DNA of 64,000 nucleotides. Origin: Agromyces cavernae (GTDB lineage: Bacteria; Actinomycetota; Actinomycetes; Actinomycetales; Microbacteriaceae). A model generated the notes under the pieces. The model saw only the letters and a list, made by a program, of their open reading frames with translations, did no database searches and was not told where the DNA came from. The stretch lies in assembly GCF_021044935.1 (NCBI RefSeq), contig NZ_JAJNMP010000003.1, positions 1-64,000 on the forward strand, in the 5' to 3' direction. Below are positions 4,481 to 25,804 of this stretch, in pieces. How positions within the stretch are numbered: the stretch's first letter is position 1; the number at the start of each line of letters is the position of its first letter. The position numbers and the translations under genes are program-made.

Positions 4481-4565
4481 GGTCGAGTAGCGCCCGACGA
4501 AGGAGGGCGCGTATCGAGACCCGCCCACCGGAGGTCTCGATACGGCGCTTCGCGCCTACTCGACC
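4481..4565. repeat. Element A, intergenic double copy
   Basis: GGTCGAGTAGCGCCCGACGA...GTATCGAGACC is followed by GGTCTCGATACGGCGCTTCG...CTACTCGACC, so the two modules form one large inverted repeat. It fills the gap between the VOC gene start and the stop of the downstream membrane-protein gene. Confidence 0.88.
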
Positions 4566-7299: not shown

Positions 7300-7385
7300 C
7301 TGGCCGAGACGATTGAACACCGCGCCGGCGGAGGACACGACACCTCGTGGCCTCCGCCGGCGCTCTTCACCCTGACGGGAGAACC

Positions 7386-9265: not shown

Positions 9266-9272
9266 CCCGGCC

Positions 9273-9319
9273 ATGCAGAAGGCCCGCGGTGCGCTGTGCG
9301 CGCCGCGGGCCTTCTGCAT
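9273..9319. terminator. Bidirectional terminator hairpin
   Basis: Perfect 17-bp arms ATGCAGAAGGCCCGCGG (9273-9289) and CCGCGGGCCTTCTGCAT (9303-9319), with an inner GCGC/GCGC stem in the loop. It lies between the stops of the convergent permease gene (9265) and GH35 gene (9326). There is no long T-run, which is usual for actinobacterial stem terminators. Confidence 0.88.
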
Positions 9320-9325
9320 CAGCGG

Positions 9326-11092: not shown

Positions 11093-11137
11093 CTTGGGCC
11101 TTCTCGTTCGAACCACACGCGTCAATGCGGCAGCTAG

Positions 11138-11154
11138 GAATGTTTGCGTTCACA
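11138..11154 (-). promoter_or_regulatory. LacI-family operator before the GH35 gene
   Basis: GAATGTTTGCGTTCACA on the plus strand is the exact inverse of the operator at 5869-5885. It abuts a possible -10 box for the GH35 gene (GATAAT, minus strand, 11159-11154). The shared 17-mer at two units of one functional locus is strong evidence for a common repressor. Confidence 0.82.
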
Positions 11155-11200
11155 TTATCGTGCCACACACCCACGCTGCGAAACGATTTCCCTCCCGGAA

Positions 11201-11214
11201 AGTGAGCGTTCACT
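11201..11214 (+). promoter_or_regulatory. Probable autoregulatory operator and leaderless promoter of lacI
   Basis: AGTGAGCGTTCACT matches its own inverse at 12 of 14 positions and has the central CG of LacI operators. It is followed at once by TATCAT (11214-11219) and, 6 nt later, the ATG of the LacI gene (11226). The operator would therefore sit just upstream of the -10 box of a leaderless promoter, an ideal place for self-repression. Confidence 0.75.
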
Positions 11215-11225
11215 ATCATGGCGGG

Positions 11226-12245
11226 ATGCCGCGCCGTCATAATCAGAAATCTGCACCGAGTCAGGTCGATGTCGCCCGCGCCGCCGGCGTGTCGACCCAG
11301 ACCGTGTCTCGCGTGATATCCGGGCAGTCGAACGTGCGCCCCGAGACCGCGCGGCGGGTGCTCGCTGCCGTCGAGGAGCTCGGATACCGCGTCCACGCGG
11401 CGGCTGCATCACTCGCCTCCGGCCGAACCCGCATACTCGGCGTCATCGTCGTCTCCACCGCGCGATACTCGACGAGCGCGATCACCGTCGGCATCGAGGC
11501 CGTCGCGACTGAAGAGGGATATTCGGTCACGACGGCGAGCGTTGCCGATCACGCCACCCGCGATTCCTTCTTCGACGCGTTCGACCGCCTCGAGCGGCAG
11601 GGCGCCGAGGGCGTGATCCTGCTCGCTCCCTTCAGTTTCCTCGACCCTGGCATGGACACGCGCATCGAGCGCACCCCGACCGTGCTGATGCACCGCCTCA
11701 CCGGCGGCGTCGGCACGGAGTCCGTCGTCGACCAGTCCGCGATCGCACGCCTCGCGACCGAGCACCTGCTGAGCCTCGGCCACCGCACGGTCTGGCATGT
11801 CTCCGGCGACGACTACTGGCTCGAATCGCGAGTGCGACGGGAGACCTGGGAACAGGTGCTGATCGAGCATGGCGTGACGCCTCCGCCCGTCATCCCCGCA
11901 GATTGGACGCCCGAGTCCGGCTATCGCGCCGGACGCACGATCGCCGCGATCCCCGACGCGACCGCCGTGTTCGTCGCGAGCGATGAGATGGCGTTCGGCG
12001 TAATCCGTGCGCTGCACGAGGCCGGACGCACGGTGCCAGACGACGTCTCAGTCGTGAGCGTCGACGACATCGCACTCGCGGCCTATGCCGCGCCCGCGCT
12101 GACGACCGTACGCCAGCCATTCGAAGCAGTCGGCCGAGCAGCGGCGTCCCGCATCATCGACATGATCGAGGAGCGGGAGCCGACCCCCGTCGAACCGATC
12201 CACCCCGAGTTGATCGTGCGCGCTTCAACGGCGCCGCCGGCGTGA
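11226..12245 (+). CDS. LacI family transcriptional regulator
   Basis: 339-aa sugar-responsive repressor. The N-terminal HTH (SQVDVARAAGVSTQTVSRVI, then SGQSNVRPETARRVLAAV) and hinge (ELGYRVHAAAASLASGRT) are typical. The C-terminal periplasmic-binding-like domain ends with VSVVSVDDIALAAYAAPALT and LTTVRQP. The start at 11226 fits the HTH position and a leaderless TATCAT-N6-ATG promoter; the frame is open much further upstream but has no LacI character there. Likely targets are itself, the GH35 gene and the ABC operon at 5989. Confidence 0.94.
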   Translation: MPRRHNQKSAPSQVDVARAAGVSTQTVSRVISGQSNVRPETARRVLAAVEELGYRVHAAAASLASGRTRILGVIVVSTARYSTSAITVGIEAVATEEGYSVTTASVADHATRDSFFDAFDRLERQGAEGVILLAPFSFLDPGMDTRIERTPTVLMHRLTGGVGTESVVDQSAIARLATEHLLSLGHRTVWHVSGDDYWLESRVRRETWEQVLIEHGVTPPPVIPADWTPESGYRAGRTIAAIPDATAVFVASDEMAFGVIRALHEAGRTVPDDVSVVSVDDIALAAYAAPALTTVRQPFEAVGRAAASRIIDMIEEREPTPVEPIHPELIVRASTAPPA

Positions 12246-12320: not shown

Positions 12321-13079
12321 TCATGCGATGCCACCCCCGTCGACGACGAGCGCCGATCCGGTGACGTAGCTGGCGTCGTCGCTCGCGAGCCACACGACGG
12401 CGGCGGCGATCTCACGCGGCTCGCCCATGCGCTGCAGCGGCCGGTCGGCGGCCTCGGCGAGGAACGCATCCGCATCCTGCGAGAGCTGGCGTGCCTCGTC
12501 GCGCAGCATCCCGGTGTTCACGTCGCCGGGGTTCACCGAGTTCACGCGGATGCCCTGCGGCCCGTGGTCGATCGCGAGCGCGCGCGTCATGTTCACGACC
12601 GCGCCCTTCGAGGCGCAGTACGAGATCGCCCGGCCGCCGCCCTTGAGGCCCCAGCCCGAGCCGGTGTTCACGATCGAGCCGCCGCCCGCGGCCGCCATGA
12701 CGGGCACGACGTGCTTGCACATCAGGAAGATCGAGCGCACGTTGACGCCGAACACCCGGTCCCACTCCTCGACCGTCGTCTCGACCGCGGTCGTGCGCCG
12801 GATGATCCCGGCATTGTTGAAGACGACGTTCACCCCGCCGAACTCGGCGACGGTCGTCCCGACCACCCGTTCGATATCGGTCTCGCTCGAGACATCCGCC
12901 CCGATCGCGATCGCGGTTCCGCCCGCCTCGCGGATCTCGGCGGCGACCGCCTCTGCGGCCTCGCCGTTCAGGTCGACGACCGCGACCGCGGCGCCCTCTG
13001 CGGCGAGCGCGATCGACGTCGCGCGGCCGATGCCGCCGGCGCCGCCCGTGACGATGGCCTGCTTGTTCTCAAGGCGCAT
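12321..13079 (-). CDS. Short-chain dehydrogenase/reductase
   Basis: 252-aa NAD(P)-dependent oxidoreductase of the classical SDR type. The cofactor motif is TGGAGGIGRA (residues 11-20), with VVDLNG after strand beta2, whose Asp favours NAD over NADP. NNAG, the catalytic Ser of NTGSGWGLKG, and YCASK (Tyr and Lys) are all present. The start overlaps the upstream NAD-kinase-like gene by 11 nt, and it is the last gene of the operon that begins with the GH42 enzyme. Substrate is unknown; the operon hints at a sugar- or glycine-derived alcohol. Confidence 0.93.
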   Translation of the reverse strand: MRLENKQAIVTGGAGGIGRATSIALAAEGAAVAVVDLNGEAAEAVAAEIREAGGTAIAIGADVSSETDIERVVGTTVAEFGGVNVVFNNAGIIRRTTAVETTVEEWDRVFGVNVRSIFLMCKHVVPVMAAAGGGSIVNTGSGWGLKGGGRAISYCASKGAVVNMTRALAIDHGPQGIRVNSVNPGDVNTGMLRDEARQLSQDADAFLAEAADRPLQRMGEPREIAAAVVWLASDDASYVTGSALVVDGGGIA

Positions 13080-14349
13080 GGCCTTCTCCTTCGTGTTCCG
13101 GTGCGTGGACAGGGTAGATGCTGGTGGTGCGCTGCCCGGTGATGACGCGGACGAAACCGGCGAGCGCGGCGTCGACATCGGCGTCGCCGGTGTCGACGAG
13201 CAGGGGACGCCCGCCGAGGTCGATGAGCTTCTGCTCGGGCGCGACGACGAGCAGCGGATCGTCGCCGAGCGCACCGAGCACGCGGGCGGAGAGTTGCTGG
13301 TTGCCGCGGCCGAGAAGGAAGCCCTGGCCACCGATCACGGTGACGACGGCCTGCGCCGGGCCGCGGGCGGCCTCGTCGAGGAGCTCCCGCTCCGATGCGT
13401 CGGCGAGCACGCGTCGCCCGTCGAGCACGACGTCGACGCCGAGCGGTGTCTTCGACACGCCGAGTTCGCGCGCGAGCTCGCTCATCGTGCCGCCGGGGCC
13501 GAGCAGGTAGCGAACGCCGGGTCGAAGGGCGGATGCCGCTCCCCGCGCCGCGGCGCGCACCGCGGCGAACTCGTCCGCGGGCGTCGCCGCCTTGCGCGCC
13601 TGGGTGCGTCCCGGCCGATACGGCACGGCGAGCGTGCCGTACAGCTGCGGCTCGACGCGGGCACGCCGCAGCGCGGCCTCGTCGACGTCGAGCACCTCGC
13701 GTTCGATCAGCGGAAGCGAGCCGTCTACGAGCCATGCCGCGGCGATGCCGCCCGCCGCCCGCGGGCTCACCGCGAACACCGGGGAGTACATCTTCACGCC
13801 CGCCGGGATGCCGATCGCCGCCACCCCGTCGGTCGAGTAGGCGCGCAGTGTCATATCGAGACCCCCGGCCACCCCGCCGGTCGAGTAGCGAGCGCCAGCG
13901 AGCGTATCGAGACCCTCGCCGTGCACGGGTCTCGATACGCGCCCTCCTTCGTCGGGTGCTACTCGACCGACGGATGCGAGACCTTCGGCGACATCGCGCG
14001 CGGTGCCGTCGCCGCCTGCGAACAGCACGAGCGACGCGCCCGCGTCGGCGAGCGCCCGCGCCGCGGCCGACGTGTCGCTCCCGGTCGTGTGCACCGGCGG
14101 GTGCGCCACCAAGACCGGCTCGAGACCCGCCTCGCGCACGACATCCTCGCCCATCGGCCCCGCCACCGTCAGCACGCGTATGCCGGGACGCGCCGAGGCG
14201 ACCACGGCGAGCGCCGTGAGCGCACGTTCGGCCGCGCGTGACGCGCCACCGCGCTGACTCGCGCGCGCCTGCACGTCGGCGCCGTCGCTTCCGGCGAGCC
14301 CCGCGGGCCCGCCGATGCCGGCGACGGGGTTGACGATGAGGCCGAGCAT
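13069..14349 (-). CDS. ATP-NAD kinase family protein (AcoX-like) with repeat-encoded insert
   Basis: 426-aa member of the NAD/diacylglycerol kinase superfamily. It starts MLGLIVNPVAGIGG and has the nucleotide-binding GGDGTARD (residues 112-119). Family members usually carry the sequence GIPAGVKMYS a short distance after this; here it comes at residue 180, because residues about 126-176 come from three element A modules read in frame (GRV..., GLDTLAGARYSTG, LRAYSTDG). Whether the protein still works is unknown. AcoX-like proteins accompany dehydrogenase operons but their role is not settled. It lies 2 nt after gcvPB and overlaps the SDR gene. Confidence 0.85.
   Translation of the reverse strand: MLGLIVNPVAGIGGPAGLAGSDGADVQARASQRGGASRAAERALTALAVVASARPGIRVLTVAGPMGEDVVREAGLEPVLVAHPPVHTTGSDTSAAARALADAGASLVLFAGGDGTARDVAEGLASVGRVAPDEGGRVSRPVHGEGLDTLAGARYSTGGVAGGLDMTLRAYSTDGVAAIGIPAGVKMYSPVFAVSPRAAGGIAAAWLVDGSLPLIEREVLDVDEAALRRARVEPQLYGTLAVPYRPGRTQARKAATPADEFAAVRAAARGAASALRPGVRYLLGPGGTMSELARELGVSKTPLGVDVVLDGRRVLADASERELLDEAARGPAQAVVTVIGGQGFLLGRGNQQLSARVLGALGDDPLLVVAPEQKLIDLGGRPLLVDTGDADVDAALAGFVRVITGQRTTSIYPVHAPEHEGEGHAP
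13831..13968. repeat. Element A, triple copy inside the NAD-kinase-like gene
   Basis: GGTCGAGTAG at 13831, another at about 13882, and an inverse GGTCTCGATACG...CTACTCGACC ending at 13968 together make roughly 138 bp of repeat DNA. Read on the minus strand the whole stretch stays open and multiple-of-three, so the gene is not broken. It separates two blocks that are close neighbours in the family. Confidence 0.88.
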
Positions 14350-14351
14350 GG

Positions 14352-15968
14352 TCAGGCGGCGGCCTCGGTGCTGTCGGCGGGAATCCCGAAGTACTTGCGC
14401 TGGTACGCGCGCCAGGTGATCGCCCAGCGCTCGGGGTCGTCGAGGTCGTCGTGGTGGGTGTGGTGCACGGTCTGCCGGTGGGGTGCGGTGCGCACGGTCT
14501 CGGCGTCTTCACGTGCCTCGCGGGCGATCTCCGCGAGCACGGCCGCGTACTCGTCGAGCTCAGCCATCGAATACGACTCGGTGGGCTCGAGGGTGAACGG
14601 CTGAGGCACGACGTAGGGGTGGTGGCTCGTCCAGTAGTGCATACCGAAGTCGCTCGCACGAACGCCGATCTCCTCGGAGGTGACGCCGGTCTCTTCGAAC
14701 AGCTCCTGCCACGAGTACCGCACCTGCTCGATGCGGCGGCGCCCGGTCGCGTACGGCGCCGAGGCGCCCGGGATCTCGAGCACCTTCTTCAGCAGATAGT
14801 TGTTGTTCAGCACGGCGATCTCGGCGACCGCGCGCAGACCGTCGGCGCCGAGCGCCATCATCCACGCGTAGGCGCGCACGATGTTCGGCACCACCCCGAA
14901 GAACGGTGCGACGGCGCCGATCGACTGCTCGCCCGGCTCGCGCACGACGAACCGCGCCGAGCTGGCGGAGCCGTCGGCGCCGCCCTCGCGCACGACACGC
15001 GGGCCGGGCAGGAACGGCGCGAGCGCCGCGCTCACGCCGTTCGCGCCGGCGCCCGGGCCGCCGCAGCCGTGCGGGGTGCCGAAGGTTTTATGCAGGTTGA
15101 AGTGGCAGACGTCGAAGCCGGCGTCACGGGCCCGGGTGATGCCGAGGATGCCGTTGGCGTTCGCTTGGTCGTACGACGCGAGCGCGCCGACGCCGTGCGC
15201 CGCGTCGACCCATTCCTTGATCGCCGGGTTGTAGATGCCCGTGTCTTCGGGGTTCGTGACCATGATCGCGGCCGTACGCGGCGAGAGCGCGCGCTTCAGC
15301 GCGTCGAGGTCGGGATAGCCGTCGGCGTCGGGATACAGGGTGATGACGTCGTAGCCGGCCGCCTTCGCGGCCGCCGCGTTCGAGGGGTGGCTGAAGATCG
15401 TCGTGATGACCTCGCGACGCTGCTCGCCCTCGCCGTTGGCCTCGTGGTAGGCGCGGATCATGGCGATGTTCGACCAGATCGCGGCGGAGCCGCCCTGCGT
15501 GTGCAGCGACACCTCGTCCATGCCCGAGATCTCGGCGATCATGCGTTCGGTGTTCCAGACGATCTCGAGCACGCCCTGCGCGTCGGCCGGGTCCTGCAGC
15601 GGGTGCATCGCCGTCAGCGCAGGAGTGCCGACGAGCTGGTCGTTGACCTTCGGCGCGTACTTCATGGTGCAGGTGCCCTGTCCGATGTCGACATTGAAGT
15701 CGGCGCCGAGGTTCTCCTGCGAGAGCCGCAGGTAGTGCTTCAGCACTCGCATCTGGCCCATCTCGGGCAGGGCCGGCGGCACCGCACGGCGAAGGCCCGC
15801 CGGAAGGTCTCCGACGACGTCGCCGACGGCATCGCGAACCCCGGCCTCGAGTCCGGTCACGAGCACGCCGCGCTCACCGGGCGTCGAGAGCTCGAAGATG
15901 ATGGGCTCGTCCCAGCTGGCCTGGTGGAAGCGGCGAAGGGCGGGCTTGGGTGCGACGGGGAGGCTCAT
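14352..15968 (-). CDS. gcvPB: Glycine dehydrogenase (decarboxylating) subunit 2
   Basis: 538-aa PLP-binding half of the split glycine-cleavage P-protein. The PLP lysine lies in FNLHKTFGTPHGCGGPGAG, and upstream blocks such as GTCTMKYAPKVNDQL, QGGSAAIWSN and TIFSHPSNAAAAKAAGYDVI are typical. P-protein decarboxylates glycine and loads the aminomethyl group on lipoyl-GcvH. The ATG at 15968 overlaps the gcvPA stop (ATGA). No gcvT, gcvH or lpd is near, so the subunit pair either serves H-protein encoded elsewhere or has a different substrate. Confidence 0.92.
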   Translation of the reverse strand: MSLPVAPKPALRRFHQASWDEPIIFELSTPGERGVLVTGLEAGVRDAVGDVVGDLPAGLRRAVPPALPEMGQMRVLKHYLRLSQENLGADFNVDIGQGTCTMKYAPKVNDQLVGTPALTAMHPLQDPADAQGVLEIVWNTERMIAEISGMDEVSLHTQGGSAAIWSNIAMIRAYHEANGEGEQRREVITTIFSHPSNAAAAKAAGYDVITLYPDADGYPDLDALKRALSPRTAAIMVTNPEDTGIYNPAIKEWVDAAHGVGALASYDQANANGILGITRARDAGFDVCHFNLHKTFGTPHGCGGPGAGANGVSAALAPFLPGPRVVREGGADGSASSARFVVREPGEQSIGAVAPFFGVVPNIVRAYAWMMALGADGLRAVAEIAVLNNNYLLKKVLEIPGASAPYATGRRRIEQVRYSWQELFEETGVTSEEIGVRASDFGMHYWTSHHPYVVPQPFTLEPTESYSMAELDEYAAVLAEIAREAREDAETVRTAPHRQTVHHTHHDDLDDPERWAITWRAYQRKYFGIPADSTEAAA

Positions 15969-17407
15969 GCGCTCTGCTCCTCGAGGGTCGGGATGGACAC
16001 GGATGTCTGGTGGTCGGCGTCTCGCCGGTCGAGTAGGGCGGAGCCCGTATCGAGACCAGCGATCGCCTCGGCGAGCCGGTCGATGTCTGCTTGGCTCGTC
16101 ATCTCGGTGATGCAGACGAGCAGTCGGTGCTCGCCGACGGGAACGCCGGGCTCGATGCCCTCGGCACGAAGCGCCTCGACGAGACCGGCCGCCGTGACTC
16201 CCGCGCCCGAGAGGTCGATCGTGAACTCGCGCAGGTGCACGGCGGTGTCGCCGAGCGCGATCCCGGGGATCGCCGCGAGCCGCTGCTGCGCGTAGCGCGT
16301 GCGGGCGAGCAGCACCTCGCCGAGATCGCGCATGCCCTGCGGGCCCATGAGCGCGAGGTAGACCCCCGCGGCGATGCCCCAGAGGGCGGCGGCGGTGCCG
16401 ACCCACTCCTTGCCCTCCTCGCGGTGCGCGAACGAGGTTCGGTCGTACGCCACGTCGCCGAAGCCGTACTCCCCCGGCACGTCGGTCGTCGCGAGGCCGA
16501 AGAGCCGCGACGGCATCTCCATGATGAACTTCGGGTCGTCGTGCACCGCGATGAAACCGCCGTGCGCGCCGCCGAACCACTGGTGCAGGCCGAGCGACTG
16601 GATGTCGCCGCAGACGATGTCGGCGCCCTGCTCGGCGGGCGGCGTCAGCACGCCGTAGCCGATCGGGTCGGTGCCGACCACGAGCACGGCCCCGGCGGCG
16701 TGGGCCGCGTCGGCGATCTGCCGCAGCTGCGCCTCGACCGCGCCCGTGTGGCTCGGGGTCTCGACCCAGACGGCGGCGACGTCGTCACCGAGCCGCGAGA
16801 CCAGCCCCGCGACATCCGCAACGCCGTCGATCGTCTCGACGAACTCGAGATCGAGGTGCACGCGCACGAAGTCGCGCACCTTCGAGAGCTTCGCGGGCAG
16901 CACGTCGCTCGCGACGAGGATACGGCGCCGGCCGCTCATGCGACCCGCCATCGAGAGCGCCGTCGCCGTGGCCTGGTACCCGTCGTAGGTGGGCACGTTC
17001 ACGACGTCCATGGCGAGCAGCTCGGCCATGAGCGACTGGTACTGGAACAGCGCCTGGAAGCGGCCGTGGTCTTCGTAGGGCTCCCCGGCGTACGCGGTGA
17101 GAAACTCACTGCGCCCGATGACCTCGTCGACGACGGCAGGCACGTAGTGGTTGTAGGTGCCTGCGCCGAGGAAGCTCAGGCGCTGCCGGGTCGAGACGTT
17201 CTTCGCGAGCAGTCCCTCGACGTGGCGCACGAGATCCTGCTCGGCGGTGAACGGCGCCGGCAGGTCGAGCGCGCGGCCGAGGCGAAGCTCCGCCGGCACA
17301 TCGGCGTAGAACTCGTCGACGGATGCCGCTCCCACGGCCGCGAGCATCGCCGCCTTCGATTCGGGGGCGGTGTTCGGAATGTACGGGTGTACGAATGGTT
17401 CGGTCAT
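15965..17407 (-). CDS. gcvPA: Glycine dehydrogenase (decarboxylating) subunit 1
   Basis: 480-aa N-terminal-type half of split P-protein, starting FVHPYIPNTAPESKAAML with the typical YAGEPYEDHGRFQALFQYQS, YDGYQATATALSMA and YGFGDVAYDRTSFAHRE blocks. It forms an alpha2beta2 enzyme with GcvPB in species with split genes. Most actinobacteria have the fused GcvP, so the split type suggests a distinct lineage or transfer. The final 30 residues include AGLDTGSALLDRRD, encoded by element A. The ATG at 17407 lies 7 nt after the GH42 stop, so it is in one operon with that gene. Confidence 0.92.
   Translation of the reverse strand: MTEPFVHPYIPNTAPESKAAMLAAVGAASVDEFYADVPAELRLGRALDLPAPFTAEQDLVRHVEGLLAKNVSTRQRLSFLGAGTYNHYVPAVVDEVIGRSEFLTAYAGEPYEDHGRFQALFQYQSLMAELLAMDVVNVPTYDGYQATATALSMAGRMSGRRRILVASDVLPAKLSKVRDFVRVHLDLEFVETIDGVADVAGLVSRLGDDVAAVWVETPSHTGAVEAQLRQIADAAHAAGAVLVVGTDPIGYGVLTPPAEQGADIVCGDIQSLGLHQWFGGAHGGFIAVHDDPKFIMEMPSRLFGLATTDVPGEYGFGDVAYDRTSFAHREEGKEWVGTAAALWGIAAGVYLALMGPQGMRDLGEVLLARTRYAQQRLAAIPGIALGDTAVHLREFTIDLSGAGVTAAGLVEALRAEGIEPGVPVGEHRLLVCITEMTSQADIDRLAEAIAGLDTGSALLDRRDADHQTSVSIPTLEEQSA
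16027..16057. repeat. Element A copy near the 3' end of gcvPA
   Basis: GGTCGAGTAGGGCGGAGCCC followed by GTATCGAGACC, inside the gcvPA frame. On the minus strand it encodes GLDTGSALLDR at about residues 450-460 of 480, giving the protein an extra C-terminal segment without stopping the frame. Confidence 0.85.
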
Positions 17408-17414
17408 TGGTGCC

Positions 17415-19583
17415 TCAGTCGGTGGAGTCGGACAGGGTGATGAACGGGGCGTGCGCCGCGCGCGGGCTCGCGAGCACGGCCGCGCCGAAGCTCGGAAGAG
17501 TGAGCGTGGCGTCGGTCGAGTAGCGGAGCGTATCGAGACCCCCGCCGAGCAGGTCGACCGCCCCTTCGGGCACGTCGACCGTGAGCTCATGGCGGCCGTG
17601 GTTCAGCAGGAACGTGTAGTCGGTGGTCTCGTCGCTGCGCGTCACTGCTTCGAGGTCGGTGTCGGTGCGTTCGCGGGCGGGCAGGTTCGCGGCGGCGAGC
17701 ACCGTGCGGAACACCGCGAGCATGCCCGCCGACTCGAGAACGGCACTCACGTACCAGGCGGTGCCGTCGACGTGCATGCGGCGCGTCACGGCCGCTCGGC
17801 CGGCCAGCTCGCCGCTCGCGTATCGCCCGACGACCTCGGTACCGTCGTGCACCTCGAGCCACTCGCCCCAGATCGGGTTCGCATAGCCCTCGCCGGTCGA
17901 GTAGCGAGCGCCAGCGAGCGTATCGAGACCCTCGCCGGCCGTGGTCTCGATACGGCGCTGCGCGCCTACTCGACCGACGGAAACCAGCTCGACGCGCTCG
18001 GCGTGCCCGTCGGGCACCGGCCAGTGCTCGTCGACTTCCACGCCGAGCAGGTCGCGCAGGGGCCCGGGCGCTCCCCCGTCGTGCACCTTCTCGGTGGCGT
18101 CGACGACCCCAGAGAACGGCCCGACGACGAGCTGCCCTCCGGCGGCGACGTAGTCGGCCAGCGCCGCGGCCTGCGCGACATCCGCAATGTAGAGGTTCGG
18201 CACCACGACGAGGTCGTACCCGTCGAACGGCCCGGTCGCCCGCACCGCGTCGACAGGGTGGCCGAGCTCGTAGAGCGCGGCATTCCAGGCGCGGGCCTGC
18301 GCGAGCCAGTCGAGTCGCTGCGACGGCAACGACTCGGGCGCCGACGAGCCCCACCACGAATCCCAGTCGACGACGAGCGCGACCCGCGAACGCACGCGAG
18401 TGCCGCGCACCGGCGCGAGCCGCTCGAGCTCGGCACCGAACGCCTTCGTCTCCTGGAAGCTGCGCGAGGCCTCGCCGCGGTGGCCGAGCATCGCCGAGTG
18501 GAACTTCTCCTGCCCGTACTTCGCCTGCCGCCACTGGAAGAACATCGCCCCGTCGGAGCCGTGCGCGATCGCCTGCAGGCTGTCGATGCGCATCCGGCCC
18601 GGCGCCTTCGGCACGTTGACGTCGCGCCAGCTGACGGCGCTCGCCGCCTGCTCGAGCAGCAGCCACGGCTGCCCGCCCTTCAGCGAGCGCATGAGCCCGT
18701 AGTTGAGGGCGGCCGGCACGTGGGCGTGCGGATCGGCGGGATCGGGGTAGGCGTCATCGGTCACGAGGTCCTCGACCTCGGCGAAGGTCCAGTAGTCGAG
18801 CTCGCGGAACAGGCTCATGAAGTTCGTGGTCACCGCGACGTCGGGGGTCACCTCGCGCAGCACGTCGATCTCGAGCTGGAAGAGCTCGAGCAGCGCGTCC
18901 GACGAGAACCGCTCGAAGTCGAGCAGCTGTGTCGGGTTCACCGGCCCGGTCGCCTGGCGCGGTGCCTCGATGTGCTCCCACGCGGTGTATCGCTGACCCC
19001 ACACGTTCACGCCCCACGCGTCGTTGAGGCCGTCGAGGTCGCCGTAGCGCGCCTGCAGCCAGCGACGGAAGTGAGCGGATGACTCGGGGCACCAGCATCG
19101 CGCGACGTGATCGCCGTATTCGTTCGAGATGTGCCAGAGCGCGAGTGCCGGGTGCTCGCCGTATCGTTCGGCCATGGCGCGGGACATCCGCACGACGTGC
19201 TCGCGCCAGACCGGCGAGCTCGGGCAGTACGCCTGGCGCGACCCGAACTCGAGGCGCTGGCCCTGCTCGTTCCACGGCAGCATCTCGGGGTGGCTCCTGA
19301 TGAGCCACGACGGCGGCGTCGCCGTCGCCGTCGCCAGGTCGATGCGGATGCCCTCGTTCCAGAGGATCTCGATGACGCGGTCGAGCCAGCTCCAGTCGTA
19401 GACGCCCGGCTCGGGCTCGAGTTGCGGCCACGAGAACACCGGAAGGCTCACGAGGTTGACGCCGGCCTCGCGCATGAGCCGCGCGTCTTCGAGCCAGACC
19501 TCTTCGGGCCACTGGTCGGGGTTGTAGTCGCCACCGTACGCGAGGGCGTCGAGTCGGATGCTGCGTGGAGCGCCGTCGGCCAC
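17415..19583 (-). CDS. Beta-galactosidase, glycoside hydrolase family 42
   Basis: 722-aa intracellular GH42 enzyme. The start region (YGGDYNPDQWPEEVWLED) and PVFSWPQLEPEPGVYDWSWL are signature sequences. ALWHISNEYGDHVARCWC holds the acid/base Glu (NEYG) and zinc-type cysteines. LLEQAASAVSWRDVN holds the likely nucleophile. The GTG at 19583 is chosen because AGGAG stands 5 nt upstream; the frame runs 16 codons further without support. Two element A copies lie in the C-terminal half (residues about 536-562 and 681-690). It heads the operon with gcvPA, gcvPB, the NAD-kinase-like and SDR genes, and is divergent from gntR. Confidence 0.92.
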   Translation of the reverse strand: MADGAPRSIRLDALAYGGDYNPDQWPEEVWLEDARLMREAGVNLVSLPVFSWPQLEPEPGVYDWSWLDRVIEILWNEGIRIDLATATATPPSWLIRSHPEMLPWNEQGQRLEFGSRQAYCPSSPVWREHVVRMSRAMAERYGEHPALALWHISNEYGDHVARCWCPESSAHFRRWLQARYGDLDGLNDAWGVNVWGQRYTAWEHIEAPRQATGPVNPTQLLDFERFSSDALLELFQLEIDVLREVTPDVAVTTNFMSLFRELDYWTFAEVEDLVTDDAYPDPADPHAHVPAALNYGLMRSLKGGQPWLLLEQAASAVSWRDVNVPKAPGRMRIDSLQAIAHGSDGAMFFQWRQAKYGQEKFHSAMLGHRGEASRSFQETKAFGAELERLAPVRGTRVRSRVALVVDWDSWWGSSAPESLPSQRLDWLAQARAWNAALYELGHPVDAVRATGPFDGYDLVVVPNLYIADVAQAAALADYVAAGGQLVVGPFSGVVDATEKVHDGGAPGPLRDLLGVEVDEHWPVPDGHAERVELVSVGRVGAQRRIETTAGEGLDTLAGARYSTGEGYANPIWGEWLEVHDGTEVVGRYASGELAGRAAVTRRMHVDGTAWYVSAVLESAGMLAVFRTVLAAANLPARERTDTDLEAVTRSDETTDYTFLLNHGRHELTVDVPEGAVDLLGGGLDTLRYSTDATLTLPSFGAAVLASPRAAHAPFITLSDSTD
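17514..17540. repeat. Element A, short copy in the GH42 gene
   Basis: GGTCGAGTAGCGGAGCGTAT then CGAGACC. On the minus strand it encodes GLDTLRYSTD in the last 45 residues of the GH42 enzyme. Confidence 0.82.
17895..17975. repeat. Element A, double copy in the GH42 gene
   Basis: GGTCGAGTAGCGAGCGCCAG...GTATCGAGACC followed by GGTCTCGATACGGCGCTGCG...CTACTCGACC. On the minus strand it reads VGRVGAQRRIETT, then GEGLDTLAGARYSTG, between conserved stretches of the GH42 C-terminal domains. Same arrangement as the intergenic copy at 4481-4565. Confidence 0.88.
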
Positions 19584-19787: not shown

Positions 19788-20444
19788 ATGGCGATCGAAC
19801 GCAAGAACCTTCGCTCGCAGGTGCGCGACGAACTGCTCGCACGCATGCGCACCGGACTCGTGCAGCCCGGCGAGGGCATCAACGAGGTGCAGCTCGCCGC
19901 CGAGCTCGGGGTCAGCCGCACGCCCCTGCGCGAGGCGCTGATCGCGCTCGAGAGCGAAGGGCAGATCGAGAGCGAGAACGGCAAGGGCTTCCGCTTCGTG
20001 CCGCTGAGCGCCCAGGAGTTCGAGGACCTCGCGCCCGTCATGGCGACGCTCGAGGGCCTCGCGCTCGAGCTCAGCCCGCTCGACGAGCTTCGCCCGATCG
20101 GCGTGCGGCTCGCAGCGCTCGCCGCCGAGTTCGACCAGGAGCTCGCCCAGCACGCCCTCGTCGTCACGAAGGACGACGAGTGGCACGGAATCATGCTCTC
20201 GGCGTGCCCGAACCAGCGCCTGCTCGACGTGATCGCGAGCGTGCGCGGCGCCTTCCACCGCTACGAGTCGCTCCTCGTGCCGAACGACGTGATGATCGAG
20301 CGGGTCGCCGCCGAGCACGCCGCGATCGCCGAGCACCTCGCGGCCGGCGACGTGCCCGGCGCGACCGTCGCCCTGCGGGCGAACTGGATGAACGGCATGC
20401 GTCGCATCGTCGACAGCGCCTCGAGCGCCTACTTCACCGCCTAG
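19788..20444 (+). CDS. GntR family regulator (FCD/FadR type)
   Basis: 218-aa regulator. The N-terminal winged HTH (RSQVRDELLARMRTGLVQPG, EVQLAAELGVSRTPLREALI) is followed by an all-helical ligand-binding domain with His in DEWHGIMLSACPNQRLLDVI and EHAAIAEHLAAGD, as in metal-containing FCD domains. GAGGA lies 5 nt before the ATG. It stands between the GH42-gcvP operon and the glycosidase-transporter operon, and both carry the CTGTATACA site, so it probably represses both until a sugar-derived acid or similar ligand appears. Confidence 0.94.
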   Translation: MAIERKNLRSQVRDELLARMRTGLVQPGEGINEVQLAAELGVSRTPLREALIALESEGQIESENGKGFRFVPLSAQEFEDLAPVMATLEGLALELSPLDELRPIGVRLAALAAEFDQELAQHALVVTKDDEWHGIMLSACPNQRLLDVIASVRGAFHRYESLLVPNDVMIERVAAEHAAIAEHLAAGDVPGATVALRANWMNGMRRIVDSASSAYFTA

Positions 20445-20628: not shown

Positions 20629-20759
20629 CCGAAAGTGCACTCGTCGCCTGAGAAGCGGCGGCCTCTGCACTCTCGGCAGGGGTTCACGGTCGATCGCGCC
20701 AGTTGAATCCACCGAGAGTGCACTCGCCGCCCTCATCTGGGCGATGTCTGCACTCTCGG
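20629..20759. repeat. Element B, two copies
   Basis: Copy 1 (20629-20676) has arms CCGAAAGTGCA and TGCACTCTCGG. Copy 2 (20712-20759) has CCGAGAGTGCA and TGCACTCTCGG. Both have the inner CGCC/GGCG stem. They fill most of the convergent gap between gntR and the glycosidase gene, where they may also end transcription. Nothing else is seen in 20445-20781 apart from the inverted repeat at 20468. Confidence 0.87.
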
Positions 20760-20781: not shown

Positions 20782-22509
20782 TCAGGACCGCGCCGCCCCC
20801 GAGAGGCCGACCGCGAGGTCGACGAACAGGGCCGCCGACCAGCCGAACGCCGTCGTGGCGGTGGCCGCCTTCTCGCCCGTGATCGGGTTGAAGTACTCGT
20901 GCGGACCACCGCCGTGCATGACGAGCGCGACCGTGCGCTCCGCCAGGTCGAGTGCGAGCCCCGCGCGCCCCGACGCCCGCAGGCCGGCGACGACGAGCGC
21001 GTTCGTGTTCACCCACACCGGGCCGCGCCACATGCGCTCGGGCGAGAAGTCGGGGTCGTCGAGGGCGACCGTCGGCACCGCCCACGCGGCCCCGAATCGC
21101 CGCTCGTCGGCGAGCGCGGCCACCAGCCGGTCGACGATCCGCTCGGGAAGGTGCCCGGTGAGCAACGGCATCAATCCCACCACGGTGTCGCTCGCGACAT
21201 CGGTGCCGGCCGCCCGCGCTCGGAACAGCCCGCGCTCGTCGTCCCAGAGGTCGAGGAGCAGCCCGAGCGTCCGCTCGGCGCGCGCACGGTGTGCTGCGGC
21301 ATCCGCATCGCCGAACCGCTCGGCGAACCGCGCGAGCTCGAGATCCTGCAGCACGACGTACGCGCCGAGGTCAGGCGCCGTCGTCGGCAGCGGGCCGTCG
21401 AAGATCGGGCTGTCGTCGAGCCCCGACGAGTACGGATGACCGTACTCGGGCATGCCGTCGCCGTCGAGGTCCGACTCGGCGAACCACCAGTCCTGCGAGC
21501 GGCGGATCGTCGCGAGCTGCTCGCGCGCCCAGTCGTCGGCGGGCTCGACCTCGAGCACCTTCGCGAGCGCCCACGCGGCGAGCGGCGGCTTGGTCAGCGG
21601 CACCGGCGCCGAGGGATCCGCGATCGCCGAGCCTGCCCTGCGCAGGTTCTCGCGATCTCCGGGCGGCAGGTCGTCGCTCGTCGCGAGCACGCCCAGCTCG
21701 TGCACGACATCGGGCAACTGTCCGTCGGGGCTCGGGAACCGGAATGCGAGCTCGAGCTGCTCGCGGGCGAGATCGGGGTCGCCGTGCCGCAGGCCGACGG
21801 CGATGAAGTAGGCGTCCCACTGCCAGAGCCCGACGTACCCGATCTTCGAGGGCACGACTGCGCGTGCGCGCCCGAGCGTCGGCAGCTCGACGATGTTGGC
21901 CCCGAGCACCCACCAGCAGAACGCCGTCATCGCCTGCAGGTCGCGCCGCACGCGCGGGCAGCGAGAGAACCAGTCGAGCCAGATCGCCTCGGTCGCCGCC
22001 AGGTCGGCGAGGTGCGAGTCGGATGCCGCGTGCCGAACACCGCGGTCGGCGCCGATGTCGATGCGCACGGCGGTGTTTTCTCCATGGAGCTCAATTCGGG
22101 TGAGCGCGCCGTCGGGCGTCGTCCACTCGATGATCGCTGCGGCCTCGGCGCCAGCGCGGAGCCCTAGGGTGAGCGCGCCGGGACCGGCGAACGTCAGGTC
22201 GACCACGCCGCCGAACTCGATCACGTGCGGCAGCACCCGCGTGATCGGCTGCGCCGCACCGCCGCGGTCGCGCACGATGAGCGTGTCGAGCACCCGGCAC
22301 TCGGCGAGCGACCGCTCGTACTCCGAGGTGTGCACGCGCACGCCGTCGCCCTCGCGGAAGACGAGGATGCGCGAGCGGGGCAGGGTGAACGGCGCCCGCA
22401 CGAGGTCGAGGTGCTCGCCCGCGAGCGCGGCGATGGCAGCGGCATCCGTGGTCTCGATACGGAGCTGCGCGCCGACTCGACCGGCGAAATCTGCTCGATC
22501 GTCCGCCAT
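20782..22509 (-). CDS. Alpha/alpha-barrel glycosidase (GH63/MGH1-like)
   Basis: 575-aa predicted glucosidase or glycogen-debranching-like hydrolase of the six-hairpin class. Key blocks are GYVGLWQWDAYFIAVGLRHG (the Trp-Asp pair lies where the catalytic acid is in this clan), PDGQLPDVVHELG, GLDDSPIFDGPLPTTAPDLG and MWRGPVWVNTNALVVAGLR. Specificity cannot be given. No signal peptide, so it acts on imported sugar. Residues about 9-20 (GRVGAQLRIETT) come from element A. Start at 22509 overlaps the permease stop by 1 nt, so it is translationally coupled, last in the binding-protein operon. Confidence 0.87.
   Translation of the reverse strand: MADDRADFAGRVGAQLRIETTDAAAIAALAGEHLDLVRAPFTLPRSRILVFREGDGVRVHTSEYERSLAECRVLDTLIVRDRGGAAQPITRVLPHVIEFGGVVDLTFAGPGALTLGLRAGAEAAAIIEWTTPDGALTRIELHGENTAVRIDIGADRGVRHAASDSHLADLAATEAIWLDWFSRCPRVRRDLQAMTAFCWWVLGANIVELPTLGRARAVVPSKIGYVGLWQWDAYFIAVGLRHGDPDLAREQLELAFRFPSPDGQLPDVVHELGVLATSDDLPPGDRENLRRAGSAIADPSAPVPLTKPPLAAWALAKVLEVEPADDWAREQLATIRRSQDWWFAESDLDGDGMPEYGHPYSSGLDDSPIFDGPLPTTAPDLGAYVVLQDLELARFAERFGDADAAAHRARAERTLGLLLDLWDDERGLFRARAAGTDVASDTVVGLMPLLTGHLPERIVDRLVAALADERRFGAAWAVPTVALDDPDFSPERMWRGPVWVNTNALVVAGLRASGRAGLALDLAERTVALVMHGGGPHEYFNPITGEKAATATTAFGWSAALFVDLAVGLSGAARS
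22450..22482. repeat. Element A copy at the 5' end of the glycosidase gene
   Basis: GGTCTCGATACGGAGCTGCG then CGCCGACTCGACC, inside the first 20 codons of the glycosidase. It encodes GRVGAQLRIET, the same peptide as in the ABC-F gene. Confidence 0.85.
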
Positions 22510-23459
22510 CAACGCCCGCCGAGGCCCGATGCGGCCATGCTGTTGAGGATTCGGCGCTGGCCGATGACGAAGGCGATCAGCATCGGGATCGTCGCGACCG
22601 CCGACGCCGCCATCACGAGCCCGTAGTTGAGCGAGCCGAACTGCCCGCGGAAGCTCGACAGCAGCAGCGGCACCGTGAACAGGTCGGGCGAGTTCAGCAG
22701 CACGAGCGGGAACAGGAAGCTGTTCCACACGTCGAGCGCGACGATGATGCTGAGCGCGCCGAGCCCTGGCTTCAGGTTCGGCAGGATGACGCTCCAGAAG
22801 ATCCGCCAGCGGCCGGCGCCGTCGACGAGCGCCGCTTCCTCGAGTTCCTTGGGCAGGGAGAGCACGAACTGGCGCATCAGGAACACCGCGAACGGGTTCA
22901 CGAGCATCGCGGGCACGATGAGCGACAGATGCGAATCGACCCATCCGAACTGCGCCATGAGCAGGTAGAAGGGAACGAGCGTCACCTGCTTCGGGATCAT
23001 CTGCGTCGCGAGGAACACGACGAAGATGATCCGGCTGCCGCGGAAGCGGATGCGCGCGAAGGCGTACCCCGCCATCGAGGCGGTCAGCAGCGTGCCGATG
23101 ACCGCGAGCACGACGATGTAGATGCTGTTGAAGTAGGCCTGCGCGAACGGCGCGGCGTTCCAGGCTTCGACGTAGTTGTCGAGGGTCCATGGCGCCGGCC
23201 AGAAGCTCAGCGGATCCTGCAGCAGCTGCGGCAGCGTCTTGAACGACGTGATGAGCATCCACACGAACGGGAACACCATCGCGACGCCCGCCACGATGAG
23301 GGCGACGTGCAGCACGGTCGCGCTCAGCCGGCGCCGCCCGCGCCCGGGTCGACCGCCGCCCGGGCGGGGCTCGAGCTCGGGAGCCACGATCGCGATGGTC
23401 GAATCGGTCGGAACCGAGAGCTCGTCGCGGGTCAGTGAGGGAATCGGTTTGGCGATCAT
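22509..23459 (-). CDS. Sugar ABC transporter permease (MalG/UgpE type)
   Basis: 316-aa inner-membrane permease. Helix 1 is HVALIVAGVAMVFPFVWMLI, and the EAA loop is EEAALVDGAGRWRIFWSVIL, in which an Ala-Leu-Val replaces the usual Ala-Arg-Ile. A Pro/Gly/Arg-rich cytoplasmic tail of about 45 residues precedes the first helix. Its start overlaps the upstream permease stop (ATGA). Part of the GntR-linked importer. Confidence 0.94.
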   Translation of the reverse strand: MIAKPIPSLTRDELSVPTDSTIAIVAPELEPRPGGGRPGRGRRRLSATVLHVALIVAGVAMVFPFVWMLITSFKTLPQLLQDPLSFWPAPWTLDNYVEAWNAAPFAQAYFNSIYIVVLAVIGTLLTASMAGYAFARIRFRGSRIIFVVFLATQMIPKQVTLVPFYLLMAQFGWVDSHLSLIVPAMLVNPFAVFLMRQFVLSLPKELEEAALVDGAGRWRIFWSVILPNLKPGLGALSIIVALDVWNSFLFPLVLLNSPDLFTVPLLLSSFRGQFGSLNYGLVMAASAVATIPMLIAFVIGQRRILNSMAASGLGGR

Positions 23460-24445
23460 GCTGCGTCGTCCTCGTAGTGCACGAACTTCTTCTGGGCGCC
23501 GAACTGGATCGCCGTGATCACGAGCGTGAGCAGCAGCAGGATCACCGAGGCAGCGCTCGACGGGCCGAACTCGAAGCGCCCGAAGCCGAGGTCGTAGATG
23601 TGGTAGACGATGGTGCGGGTCGCGTTGTCGGGTCCGGCGTCGGCGGTGAGGATGAACACCGTGTCGAACGTCTGCAGCGACGAGATGAAGGCCACGATCG
23701 ACGAGAAGAAGATGATCGGCGAGAGCAGGGGCAGGCGGATGCTGCGCAGCAGCCGGAATGCGCCGGCACCGTCGATGCGCGCCGCCTCGATGACCGACGG
23801 CGAGATGTTCTGCAGGCCCGCCAGGAAGATGATGACGTTGAGGCCGAGCGCCGACCAGATCGACACGATGCACACGGCGATGAGCGCGAGGCGCGGGTCG
23901 CCGAGCCAGTCGGGCGGCGCGATGCCGAAGATCGCCGAGATCGTCTGGCTCAGCACGCCGTCGACGCGGAACATCTGCTGCCAGATCATCGCGACGGCGA
24001 CCGTGCTCGTCACGACCGGCGCGAAGAACAGGATCAGGTAGAGCGTGCGGGTCTTGAGCTTCTCGAGCGCGACGGCGATGACGACCGCGAGGCCGAGGCC
24101 GATGGGCACGGTGATGATCGCGATGAGCAGCGTGTTGACGATCGAGCGGAGCAGCAGTTCGTCCTGCAGCTGCGCGGTGAAGTTCTCGAGGCCGACCCAC
24201 GTGAGCTCAGTGAGACCGTTCCACGAGGCGAATGCCAGCACCATGCTGGCGACGAACGGCAGCAGCACGAAGACCGCCATGCCCACCACCTGCGGGCCGA
24301 TGAAGACGTAGCCCCATCGACGGTCGCGCCGCCGCCAGGCGGACTCCTTGTTGAGTCCGCCCGGCGCGGATGCCGCGGGGTCAGCGGGTGGCGCGACGGT
24401 CGTCGCGGCCGCGCCACCCGGCTGGAGCGTCATCTCGTCGCTCAC
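23456..24445 (-). CDS. Sugar ABC transporter permease (MalF/UgpA type)
   Basis: 329-aa permease starting with a low-complexity cytoplasmic tail, then GYVFIGPQVVGMAVFVLLPF as helix 1. The EAA loop is IEAARIDGAGAFRLLRSIRL. It overlaps both neighbours by 4 nt, so binding protein, two permeases and glycosidase are one transcript. No ATPase gene is present, as in the LacI locus. Confidence 0.94.
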   Translation of the reverse strand: MSDEMTLQPGGAAATTVAPPADPAASAPGGLNKESAWRRRDRRWGYVFIGPQVVGMAVFVLLPFVASMVLAFASWNGLTELTWVGLENFTAQLQDELLLRSIVNTLLIAIITVPIGLGLAVVIAVALEKLKTRTLYLILFFAPVVTSTVAVAMIWQQMFRVDGVLSQTISAIFGIAPPDWLGDPRLALIAVCIVSIWSALGLNVIIFLAGLQNISPSVIEAARIDGAGAFRLLRSIRLPLLSPIIFFSSIVAFISSLQTFDTVFILTADAGPDNATRTIVYHIYDLGFGRFEFGPSSAASVILLLLTLVITAIQFGAQKKFVHYEDDAA

Positions 24446-25740
24446 TTACCCGTCTTGTCGGCCACGAGGTCGGCGACCGCGTCGAGCGTGCCCTGCGCGT
24501 CGGCCTTGCCATCGTAGAGGGCGAGGAACAGGTCGCTGATGTCGGTCGACAGGCCCGGCACCGCTGCCTCGCCCGGGTGGTTCGCGAAGCCGATGTCGCG
24601 CATGTCGAGGAAGGTCTGCGCGTGAGCCGGGTAGTCGGCCTCGAGCACCACGTCGTCGGCGCCCTGGATCGACGGCACGGCGTTGCCGCCGCCTTCGAGG
24701 CGGAAGGTCTGTCCTTCGGCGCTCAAGAACTCCGTCCAGAACGTGAAGGCGGCTTCCGACGCGTCGGTGCGACCGTTGATCGCGAGGTACGACGCGGCGA
24801 CACCCGTCGGCGCCTCTGCGCCGTCGGGCGTGGGCCAGCGGACGATGTCGTAGGACTCCGCCACGCCGGCCGATTCGACCGTGCCGATCGTGTAGCGGCC
24901 CTGCGAGAAGAATCCGGCCTTGTGGGTCACGAAGGTGCTGTCGGCGCCGGCGCCCTCGGGCATCGTGTCCGCGACGACGAAGGTGCCGTCCTGGAAGTAC
25001 TCGCCGAGGGTGTCGACCGCGGCGACCGTCGTCGGGTCATCGTTCCCGACGAACGCGCCCGACTCGTCGTACGCGGTGCCGCCCTGAGATGAGACCCAGC
25101 TCCAGTGCGTCGCCCAGTAGTTCCAGTACATGCTGCCGATGAGACCGGCCGCAGCGAGCTTGTCGTTCATCTCGAGGAACTTCTCGGTCGTCCACTCGCC
25201 GCTCTCGGCGAGGGCCGCAGGGTCCTCCGTGATGCCGGCGGCGGCGAGCGCCTCCTTGTCGTACCAGAGCACGTCGGGGTTCGAGTCGTTCGGGGCCGCG
25301 TAGGTCTCGCCGTCCTTCTGGGCGGCGCCGAACAGGCCGGGGAAGAAGTCGTCGGGCTTGGTCTGGCTCGCCTCCGACTCCATGAGCTCGTTCAGGGGCG
25401 CCAGCACGCCCGCGTCGACGAACTCGCCGATCTTGTCGTCGCCGACGTAGAAGACGTCGGGCGCGGTGTTGCTCGTGAGCTGGGCGAGCAGCTTCGAGTG
25501 GTAGTCGGCGTAGCTCGCGACGGGCTGGAGTTCGACCTTGATGTCGGGGTGTCGCTTCATGAACTCGTCGTTGAACTCCTCGAAGCGCGTGAGCTCCTCG
25601 GGGGTTCCCCACGTCGACCAGACGACGGTGTCACTGTCGGATCCACCTCCTCCCGCGCTGCATGCTGCCAGACCGATCATCAGGGCGCTCGCGGCTCCAA
25701 CCGCGAGTAGGCGCCTCATCTTCGAGTTCGCGCGGGGCAT
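24442..25740 (-). CDS. Sugar ABC transporter substrate-binding lipoprotein
   Basis: 432-aa family 1 binding protein. The lipobox is MIGLAAC|SA after a 25-residue signal peptide. TVVWSTWGTPEELTRFEEFN and FMKRHPDIKVELQPVASYAD are typical N-terminal lobe sequences, and APDVFYVGDDKIGEFVDAGV follows. First gene of the operon. A GntR operator lies 65 bp before its start. The ligand is probably an oligosaccharide processed by the co-transcribed glycosidase and the divergent GH42 enzyme. Confidence 0.94.
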   Translation of the reverse strand: MPRANSKMRRLLAVGAASALMIGLAACSAGGGGSDSDTVVWSTWGTPEELTRFEEFNDEFMKRHPDIKVELQPVASYADYHSKLLAQLTSNTAPDVFYVGDDKIGEFVDAGVLAPLNELMESEASQTKPDDFFPGLFGAAQKDGETYAAPNDSNPDVLWYDKEALAAAGITEDPAALAESGEWTTEKFLEMNDKLAAAGLIGSMYWNYWATHWSWVSSQGGTAYDESGAFVGNDDPTTVAAVDTLGEYFQDGTFVVADTMPEGAGADSTFVTHKAGFFSQGRYTIGTVESAGVAESYDIVRWPTPDGAEAPTGVAASYLAINGRTDASEAAFTFWTEFLSAEGQTFRLEGGGNAVPSIQGADDVVLEADYPAHAQTFLDMRDIGFANHPGEAAVPGLSTDISDLFLALYDGKADAQGTLDAVADLVADKTGK

Positions 25741-25804
25741 TCCGCCACCTCTTTCGTCATTGCAGGGGTACCGGCGGGGGCCGGTAACAGGAAATCACTC
25801 GCTC

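What the first reader, a model, noticed from the sequence alone, without database searches (positions are those of the whole stretch)
12321..19583. GH42-gcvPA-gcvPB-NADK-like-SDR operon: a possible new pathway
Five minus-strand genes are spaced by -11 to 7 nt. A split glycine decarboxylase P-protein without T, H or L genes, joined to a galactosidase, an AcoX-like protein and an SDR, matches no pathway I know. Actinobacteria normally use fused GcvP. It may break down a glycine- or amino-acid-linked glycoside, or the P-protein-like enzyme may act on another amino acid.
Basis: partly seen in the sequence, partly recalled or inferred. Interest (0 to 1): 0.72.

Follow-up and report, generated by a model that had tools for sequence, protein, structure and literature searches.

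The report
Glycoside-fed amino-acid breakdown operon, uncharacterised
A group of soil bacteria carries a conserved, unstudied set of genes that seems to import a sugar-bearing molecule, cut off its sugars, and break down what is left with an enzyme labelled as part of the glycine cleavage system but differing from it at key positions; in this strain several of these genes also carry short repeat DNA inserted without breaking them.

Summary
The operon is real: five minus-strand genes (GH42, gcvPA-like, gcvPB-like, ATP-NAD-kinase-like, SDR) spaced -11 to +7 nt. The pair belongs to a distinct P-protein subfamily: the PLP lysine is kept, but an active-site tyrosine is missing in 92 of 92 PA (present in 22 of 22 canonical) and an H-protein-contact lysine is Asp/Glu in 83 of 92. 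PA-PB-kinase, usually with SDR, recurs in Actinomycetota, Chloroflexota and Alphaproteobacteria; gcvT/gcvH were found beside it in 0 of 75 testable loci. Many actinomycete loci add an ABC importer, an MGH1-like glycosidase and GH42; of 4 loci with MGH1 but no GH42, 3 carry a GH2 beta-galactosidase. Best reading: a beta-galactoside is imported and deglycosylated, and the core degrades its amino-acid-like aglycone; substrate and chemistry are inferred. Unexpectedly, in-frame REP-like palindromes sit inside the NADK-like, PA and GH42 genes, in low-confidence loops of the two models made, and recur at some of the same loops in related species; intragenic REPs are published for other bacteria. A collagen-hydroxylysine pathway is possible but unsupported by collagenase distribution.

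The parts
12321..13079 (-). SDR-family oxidoreductase (252 aa)
   Evidence: PF13561 2.5e-63; orthologue at >=40% identity in 75 of 84 testable cassette loci
13069..14349 (-). ATP-NAD-kinase-like protein (426 aa) with an in-frame repeat insert
   Evidence: PF01513 and PF20143; 87 of 89 testable loci; model pLDDT 84.8, N-terminal DAGK/NADK fold Z about 11
14352..15968 (-). GcvPB-like PLP subunit (538 aa)
   Evidence: NF003346 538.1 bits against cut-off 441; PLP Lys294 in 95 of 95
15965..17407 (-). GcvPA-like subunit (480 aa)
   Evidence: NF001696 452.3 bits against cut-off 364; active-site Tyr (human Y164) deleted in 92 of 92
17415..19583 (-). GH42 beta-galactosidase-like (722 aa) with in-frame repeat inserts
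   Evidence: PF02449 2.3e-147, PF08532, PF08533 (scanned with the longer frame to 19631)
19788..20444 (+). GntR/FCD regulator, divergent
   Evidence: PF00392, PF07729; 62 of 85 testable loci by tblastn
20782..22509 (-). MGH1-like glycoside hydrolase (575 aa)
   Evidence: PF22422 3.2e-72 on 20782-22359; start; a relative in 63 of 94 loci
22509..23459 (-). ABC sugar permease B; its stop codon shares one base with the MGH1 start
   Evidence: frame; permease B homologue next to MGH1 in relatives, PF00528 in L088; window frame itself not scanned with Pfam
23456..24445 (-). ABC sugar permease A
   Evidence: PF00528 6.4e-18
24445..25794 (-). candidate solute-binding protein (open frame between stops, start not fixed)
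   Evidence: 450-aa open frame with lipoprotein-like start, not scanned with Pfam; the neighbouring frame in relatives is SBP_bac_1
13826..13973 (-). in-frame REP-like cluster in the NADK gene (two exact elements 13879-13914 and 13928-13968, one degenerate)
   Evidence: 48-codon insert against L039; model residues 130-173 pLDDT <50
16027..16057 (-). in-frame REP-like element near the PA C-terminus
   Evidence: not modelled
17895..17975 (-). in-frame REP-like pair in GH42 (site A)
   Evidence: 29-codon insert against L039; model residues 536-562 pLDDT <50
17514..17540 (-). in-frame REP-like element in GH42 (site C)
   Evidence: model residues 682-685 pLDDT <50
22434..22486 (.). degenerate REP-like element near the MGH1 start, in frame
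   Evidence: similar residues in L040/L051 and L061

Best explanation
The locus is a catabolic unit with its own GntR regulator (control inferred). An ABC importer takes up a glycoside (inferred). The MGH1-like hydrolase and a beta-galactosidase (GH42, in some lineages GH2) remove its sugars (inferred from families). The core (P-protein-like PLP heterodimer, NAD-kinase-fold protein and SDR) then degrades the amino-acid-like aglycone (inferred). The heterodimer is a distinct P-protein subfamily (shown by sequence) that most likely makes a PLP carbanion on a substrate other than glycine and does not dock the ordinary lipoyl H protein (inferred from residue changes). The in-frame repeats are REP-like elements lodged in loops that tolerate them, not a functional part of the enzymes (inferred).
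For: Second P-protein beside a complete canonical set. Distinct clades: PA 92 of 92, support 0.997; PB 95 of 95, support 0.999; branches 0.92 and 0.94. PLP Lys294, Asp267 and His194 kept in 95 of 95 PB. Human Y164 (active site in PMC7259800, passages) deleted in 92 of 92 PA and present in 22 of 22 canonical. Human K376 (H-interface in that paper) is Asp/Glu in 83 of 92 against Lys/Arg in 22 of 22. R373 is Arg in 22 of 22 canonical and Leu, His or Val in 72 of 92 here (mapping). Context: NADK 87 of 89, SDR 75 of 84, gcvT and gcvH 0 of 75. GH42 in 65 of 94 loci, MGH1-like in 63, both in 59. Of 4 with MGH1 but no GH42, 3 (L076, L100, L115) have a GH2 beta-galactosidase, and that GH2 rings in no other locus. 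In L115 the GH2 frame overlaps the end of the SDR frame.
Against: No biochemistry. GcvH lies elsewhere in 39 of 42 cassette genomes. Several Chloroflexota loci and all eight plasmid loci show no GH42 or MGH1-like gene in the stretch held, so the core can occur without these glycosidases and the link may be lineage-bound. Split pairs on the canonical side without T and H hits beside them also exist (L201, L203). The gcvT/gcvH test used the own genome's proteins by tblastn at 1e-8 and could miss distant ones. The canonical set was only 22 sequences, 18 of them fused GcvP from the own genus and order. Both NCBIfam equivalog models score above cut-off.
Confidence: 0.55

Rival explanations
1. An accessory glycine decarboxylase that uses the cell's own GcvH, T and L, for glycine released in sugar-rich conditions.
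For: GcvH, T and fused P are present in the own genome; GcvH in 39 of 42 cassette genomes; both NCBIfam GcvPA/GcvPB equivalog cut-offs exceeded.
Against: Y164 deleted in 92 of 92 and the H-contact lysine replaced by Asp/Glu in 83 of 92; T and H neighbours found in 0 of 75; does not explain the kinase-like and SDR genes.
Confidence: 0.2
2. The glycosidases and transporter are merely neighbours; the core PA-PB-NADK-SDR degrades a free amino acid taken up on its own.
For: Alphaproteobacterial and Rhodococcus plasmid loci have NADK-PA-PB without these glycosidases; two show an APC permease and an AMP-binding enzyme, two a DapA-like enzyme, a sugar-phosphate isomerase and oxidoreductases. Several Chloroflexota loci lack these glycosidases in the stretch held.
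Against: ABC-MGH1-PA-PB-NADK-SDR order recurs in Chloroflexota (L100, L115), and beta-galactosidase is kept by replacement.
Confidence: 0.2
3. The operon is decaying, and the repeats are signs of lost selection.
For: Four repeat clusters inside three genes of the window; 5 of 15 same-genus loci examined carry repeat half-signatures in at least one of the five genes.
Against: The window's five frames stay open through the inserts; insert-free NADK orthologues L039 and L050 are 79 and 80% identical; the NADK and GH42 inserts fall in low-confidence loops of the models.
Confidence: 0.07

Closest known systems
Glycine cleavage system P-protein, split form GcvPA/GcvPB (1wyt Thermus)
   Same: Two-subunit PLP fold, adjacent genes, PLP lysine motif NLHKTF; best solved relative
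   Different: Active-site tyrosine deleted, H-contact charge changed, no gcvT/gcvH found beside it, separate clade
NAD kinase / diacylglycerol kinase fold proteins (PF01513, PF20143; the names COG3199 and AcoX are recalled)
   Same: GGDGT invariant; N-terminal domain matches DgkB, DAGK and NADK structures at Z about 11
   Different: No Foldseek match at E <= 0.001; substrate unknown; C-terminal part barely covered by the matches
GH42 beta-galactoside utilisation loci with ABC importer (recalled as a type)
   Same: GH42 with SBP and two permeases
   Different: Here tied to a P-protein-like core and an MGH1-like hydrolase
Rickettsia palindromic elements and intragenic GTAG/CGTC REPs (PMC3733652 and PMC10969869, passages seen)
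   Same: Short palindromic repeats, many copies, some in frame inside genes, partly in dimers
   Different: Different sequence and an actinobacterial genus; no Y1_Tnp (RAYT) match in the genome; several copies in one operon

Membership tests
Glycine cleavage P-protein | PLP-binding lysine in the B half | tested here: met
   K294 in 95 of 95
Glycine cleavage P-protein | NCBIfam GcvPA and GcvPB equivalog cut-offs | tested here: met
   452.3 against 364 and 538.1 against 441 bits
Glycine cleavage P-protein | Active-site tyrosine equivalent to human Y164 | tested here: not met
   gap in 92 of 92; Tyr in 22 of 22 canonical
Glycine cleavage P-protein | H-protein contact residues (human Q366, I372, R373, K376) | tested here: not met
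   Window has Y, A, H, E; K376 column Asp/Glu 83 of 92. The contacts come from a docking model in PMC7259800, passages only
Glycine cleavage P-protein | Encoded with gcvT and gcvH | tested here: not met
   0 of 75 testable loci by tblastn; canonical controls L001, L200, L202 positive, L201 and L203 negative
Glycine cleavage P-protein | Glycine decarboxylation with lipoyl H protein | not testable with these tools
   needs an enzyme assay
NAD kinase (PF01513/PF20143) | Domains and GGDGT motif | tested here: met
NAD kinase (PF01513/PF20143) | Kinase activity and substrate | not testable with these tools
   needs an assay
AcoX of acetoin operons | Encoded with acoABC | not tested
GH42 beta-galactosidase | Three GH42 domains | tested here: met
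   PF02449, PF08532, PF08533 above cut-off
Intragenic REP / Rickettsia palindromic element | Multi-copy palindromic element, some copies in frame inside genes | tested here: met
   101 pattern matches, reversed-pattern control 0; in-frame inserts
Intragenic REP / Rickettsia palindromic element | RAYT (Y1_Tnp) transposase in the genome | tested here: not met
   0 matches to PF01797 in G000; control rings in 5 of 14. Rickettsia elements are not defined by it

The most novel reading that the evidence does not exclude
The locus degrades collagen-type glucosylgalactosyl-hydroxylysine (Glc-alpha-1,2-Gal-beta-O-hydroxylysine): the ABC importer takes it up, the MGH1/YgjK-like hydrolase removes glucose, GH42 or GH2 removes galactose, the kinase-like protein phosphorylates hydroxylysine, and the P-protein-like enzyme acts as a PLP lyase or decarboxylase on its aminomethyl end, with the SDR finishing. 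It would be a bacterial pathway made from a repurposed glycine cleavage enzyme.
Probability: 0.08. Interest if true: 0.85.

Novelty: new variant of a known kind. Interest (0 to 1): 0.6.

Why it matters
A whole subfamily scores above the standard GcvPA/GcvPB models, and is so annotated in plasmid records, although its active-site and H-protein-contact positions differ, so metabolic reconstructions may be wrong. If the galactoside link holds, it gives a testable pathway for a kinase-fold family with no close solved relative and a new job for the P-protein fold. The repeats give an actinobacterial case of palindromic DNA entering several enzymes of one operon without breaking them.

Tried and rejected
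Rejected: 'this pair is simply the cell's glycine cleavage enzyme'. Set low: decay of the operon, since the frames stay open.

Tried with little yield: single-sequence PDB search with the L039 NADK-like protein, 0 hits; profile search, one weak DgkB hit at 0.0072; Foldseek, none at E <= 0.001. NAD kinases and lipid kinases both appear in the VIA list, so the kinase type is unresolved. The GcvH survey did not separate the hypotheses: 39 of 42 have it, the three misses (L074, L118, L129) being MAGs by title. Collagenase M9 test for the hydroxylysine idea: 5 of 41 same-genus genomes have it; of the 13 with the cassette only G013 does, and the own genome has none, which speaks against a collagen link. 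Paper searches: 22 and 86 returned 0 papers; one listed 25 of 40, 45 listed 15 of 804 (mostly acyl-CoA oxidase), 23 listed 20 of 49, 27 15 of 56,985, 46 20 of 23, 55 4 of 4, 97 10 of 11, 106 8 of 9; of these I saw titles and abstract starts only, save the passages cited. YgjK's Glc-alpha-1,2-Gal specificity and the mammalian hydroxylysine kinase and phospho-lyase route are recalled, from no call.

Own errors: my GH42 query was translated out of frame (19588 is not in frame with 17415), so GH42 identities, lengths and repeat counts from those calls are not used; corrected. Searches failed on stop codons from wrong coordinates; resent with corrected ends or without some rows (L108 left out; L050, L045, L105, L113, L117, L124, L126, L128 left out). 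Five duplicate loci (L051, L053, L060, L061, L092) were dropped before the counts; sequences of 380 residues or fewer (cassette) or 300 or fewer (canonical) were dropped. Further duplicates of one species under two locus ids may remain. The repeat comparison (4 of 4 operon clusters in genes, against 6 of 70 elsewhere, Fisher p 1.8e-4) is post hoc: the operon clusters were judged by gene annotation, the others by a GC3 rule with three more cases at gene ends, 91 of the 101 matches lay in the fetched stretches, and the cluster at 4481-4565 was in neither group.
Full report
Observation. All five genes are present where stated, with the stated spacing, and their families are as named, except that 'AcoX-like' is better written as an ATP-NAD-kinase-like protein (PF01513 + PF20143). 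The closest loci retrieved by protein search bear titles of Agromyces and Microbacterium, and same-genus handles share contig lengths with Agromyces records, so the window is most likely Agromyces. The own genome holds a fused gcvP beside gcvH and gcvT.

Conservation. In the own genus 13 of 37 genomes searched (own plus 36) have the close PB type. In an even draw of 396 genomes of the own phylum only 3, own included, reach E <= 1e-110 (only three first-look candidates per listed genome were scored), so it looks rare. Over 94 loci after removal of five duplicates, an NADK-like gene lies nearby in 87 of 89 testable loci, the SDR in 75 of 84, GntR in 62 of 85 and GH42 in 65 of 87; gcvT and gcvH in 0 of 75. 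These loci are the best 80 of a capped list plus same-genus and plasmid ones, so they are not an even sample. Pfam finds GntR/FCD genes also in Chloroflexota loci that tblastn missed (L100, L101, L115, L119, L122). Plasmid loci of Sphingomonas, Gemmobacter, Rhodococcus, Paracoccus, Antarctobacter and Roseicitreum show NADK-PA-PB, annotated as GcvPA/GcvPB; a haloarchaeal one shows no NADK-like gene in the stretch. The eight plasmid loci, with RHA1 (L205, no annotation), form one basal sub-clade.

A distinct subfamily. Trees place all cassette PA (92) and PB (95) apart from 22 canonical sequences, support 0.997 and 0.999, with branches of 0.92 and 0.94. The root was set on the canonical side, so this shows separation, not which came first. 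Of the positions named for human GLDC in PMC7259800 (passages only), Y161 is kept in 83 of 92 while Y164 is deleted in 92 of 92; the window has Y, A, H and E at Q366, I372, R373 and K376. The K376 column is Asp or Glu in 83 of 92 and Lys or Arg in 22 of 22 canonical. K376E is itself a listed patient variant in that paper. PB keeps Lys294, Asp267 and His194 in 95 of 95 but changes the neighbourhood (for example Trp446 and His449 in 95 of 95). This supports an active PLP enzyme with another substrate site; it does not show it.

Glycoside link. In the window a candidate SBP frame, two permeases and an MGH1-like hydrolase lie tightly packed on the same strand beyond the divergent GntR. Over the 94 loci, GH42 occurs in 65, the MGH1-like gene in 63 and both in 59; the six with GH42 alone are L049, L062, L064, L066, L071, L078. 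Four loci have MGH1 without GH42: L076, L077, L100, L115. Three of these carry a GH2 beta-galactosidase; the fourth, L077, ends just after PB, so its downstream side is unseen. In the Chloroflexota locus L115 the order is GntR, SBP, permeases, MGH1-like, PA, PB, NADK, SDR, GH2. Retention of beta-galactosidase by an unrelated family is the strongest evidence that the natural substrate carries a beta-galactosyl residue; the sample is three loci, two of them related to each other (GH2 62% identical). Several Chloroflexota and all eight plasmid loci show no such glycosidase in the stretch held, so the core also occurs without it.

The kinase-like protein. The model (mean pLDDT 84.8) matches DAGK, NAD kinase and sphingosine kinase structures over about 120-146 residues at Z about 9-11, while Foldseek gives none at E <= 0.001. 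It is a kinase-fold protein of unknown substrate.

The repeats. A palindromic element (GGTCTCGATACG...TACTCGACC) gives 101 matches in the genome, control 0, and occurs in 20 of 50 genomes searched, all of the own genus and own included. Inside the operon four clusters are in frame: in NADK (a 48-codon insert against L039), at the PA C-terminus, and at two sites of GH42. Elsewhere 6 of 70 clusters passed my test for lying inside a gene, with three more at gene ends. Of 15 same-genus loci, five (L042, L045, L050, L054, L055) have repeat half-signatures in GH42, L054 also in NADK and PA, L042 also in PB; they fall at the same GH42 loops or at a third one. L040 in GH42 and L039 in PA look alike by peptide only. 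Similar residues stand near the MGH1 start of the window, L040 and L061. The NADK and GH42 inserts fall where the models have pLDDT under 50. No RAYT-type match was found in the genome. REPs inside genes are already described in other bacteria (PMC3733652, passages; PMC10969869, passages); the word Actinobacteria does not occur in the first paper's text. So this is a new case of a known kind.

Most likely mechanism. Shown by sequence: gene content, conservation, subfamily, residue changes, frame-keeping inserts. Inferred: import, deglycosylation, and degradation of an amino-acid-like aglycone by kinase-like, PLP and SDR enzymes. The hydroxylysine version is a guess that fits the pairing of an MGH1/YgjK-like and a beta-galactosidase enzyme (a YgjK N-terminal domain is seen in L105; Glc-alpha-1,2-Gal on hydroxylysine of collagen is described in PMC8626586, passages), but the collagenase distribution does not support it.

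Noticed in passing
window 3848-3893, 20713-20758, 35622-35750, 54917-55119, 56288-56418: A second palindromic family (CGAGAGTGCA...TGCACTCTCG, mostly about 46 bp): 20 places in the genome with reversed-pattern control 0; one search lists 10 copies in register in the window.
   Followed up: partly
window 40955-41210: tRNA-Ser(gga) followed by two further copies of its 3' end in 65-bp steps, as might be left by site-specific integration or tandem duplication.
   Followed up: no
window 1-109: 30-bp tandem repeats made of the same REP-like half (GCTGGCGCGCCTACTCGACCGACGG).
   Followed up: no
window 7347-12245: A second galactoside-type unit downstream: two permease-like frames, a GH35 beta-galactosidase and a LacI regulator (the permeases were not scanned).
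   Followed up: no
G017 (same genus), many places on C1: REP-like elements often in tandem arrays, many about 90-110 bp apart, unlike the scattered copies of the own genome.
   Followed up: no
NADK orthologues in Microbacterium (L056, L064, L066, L067): The same loop, and one before it, carry long insertions without the Agromyces repeat pattern, so the loops are variable beyond Agromyces.
   Followed up: partly
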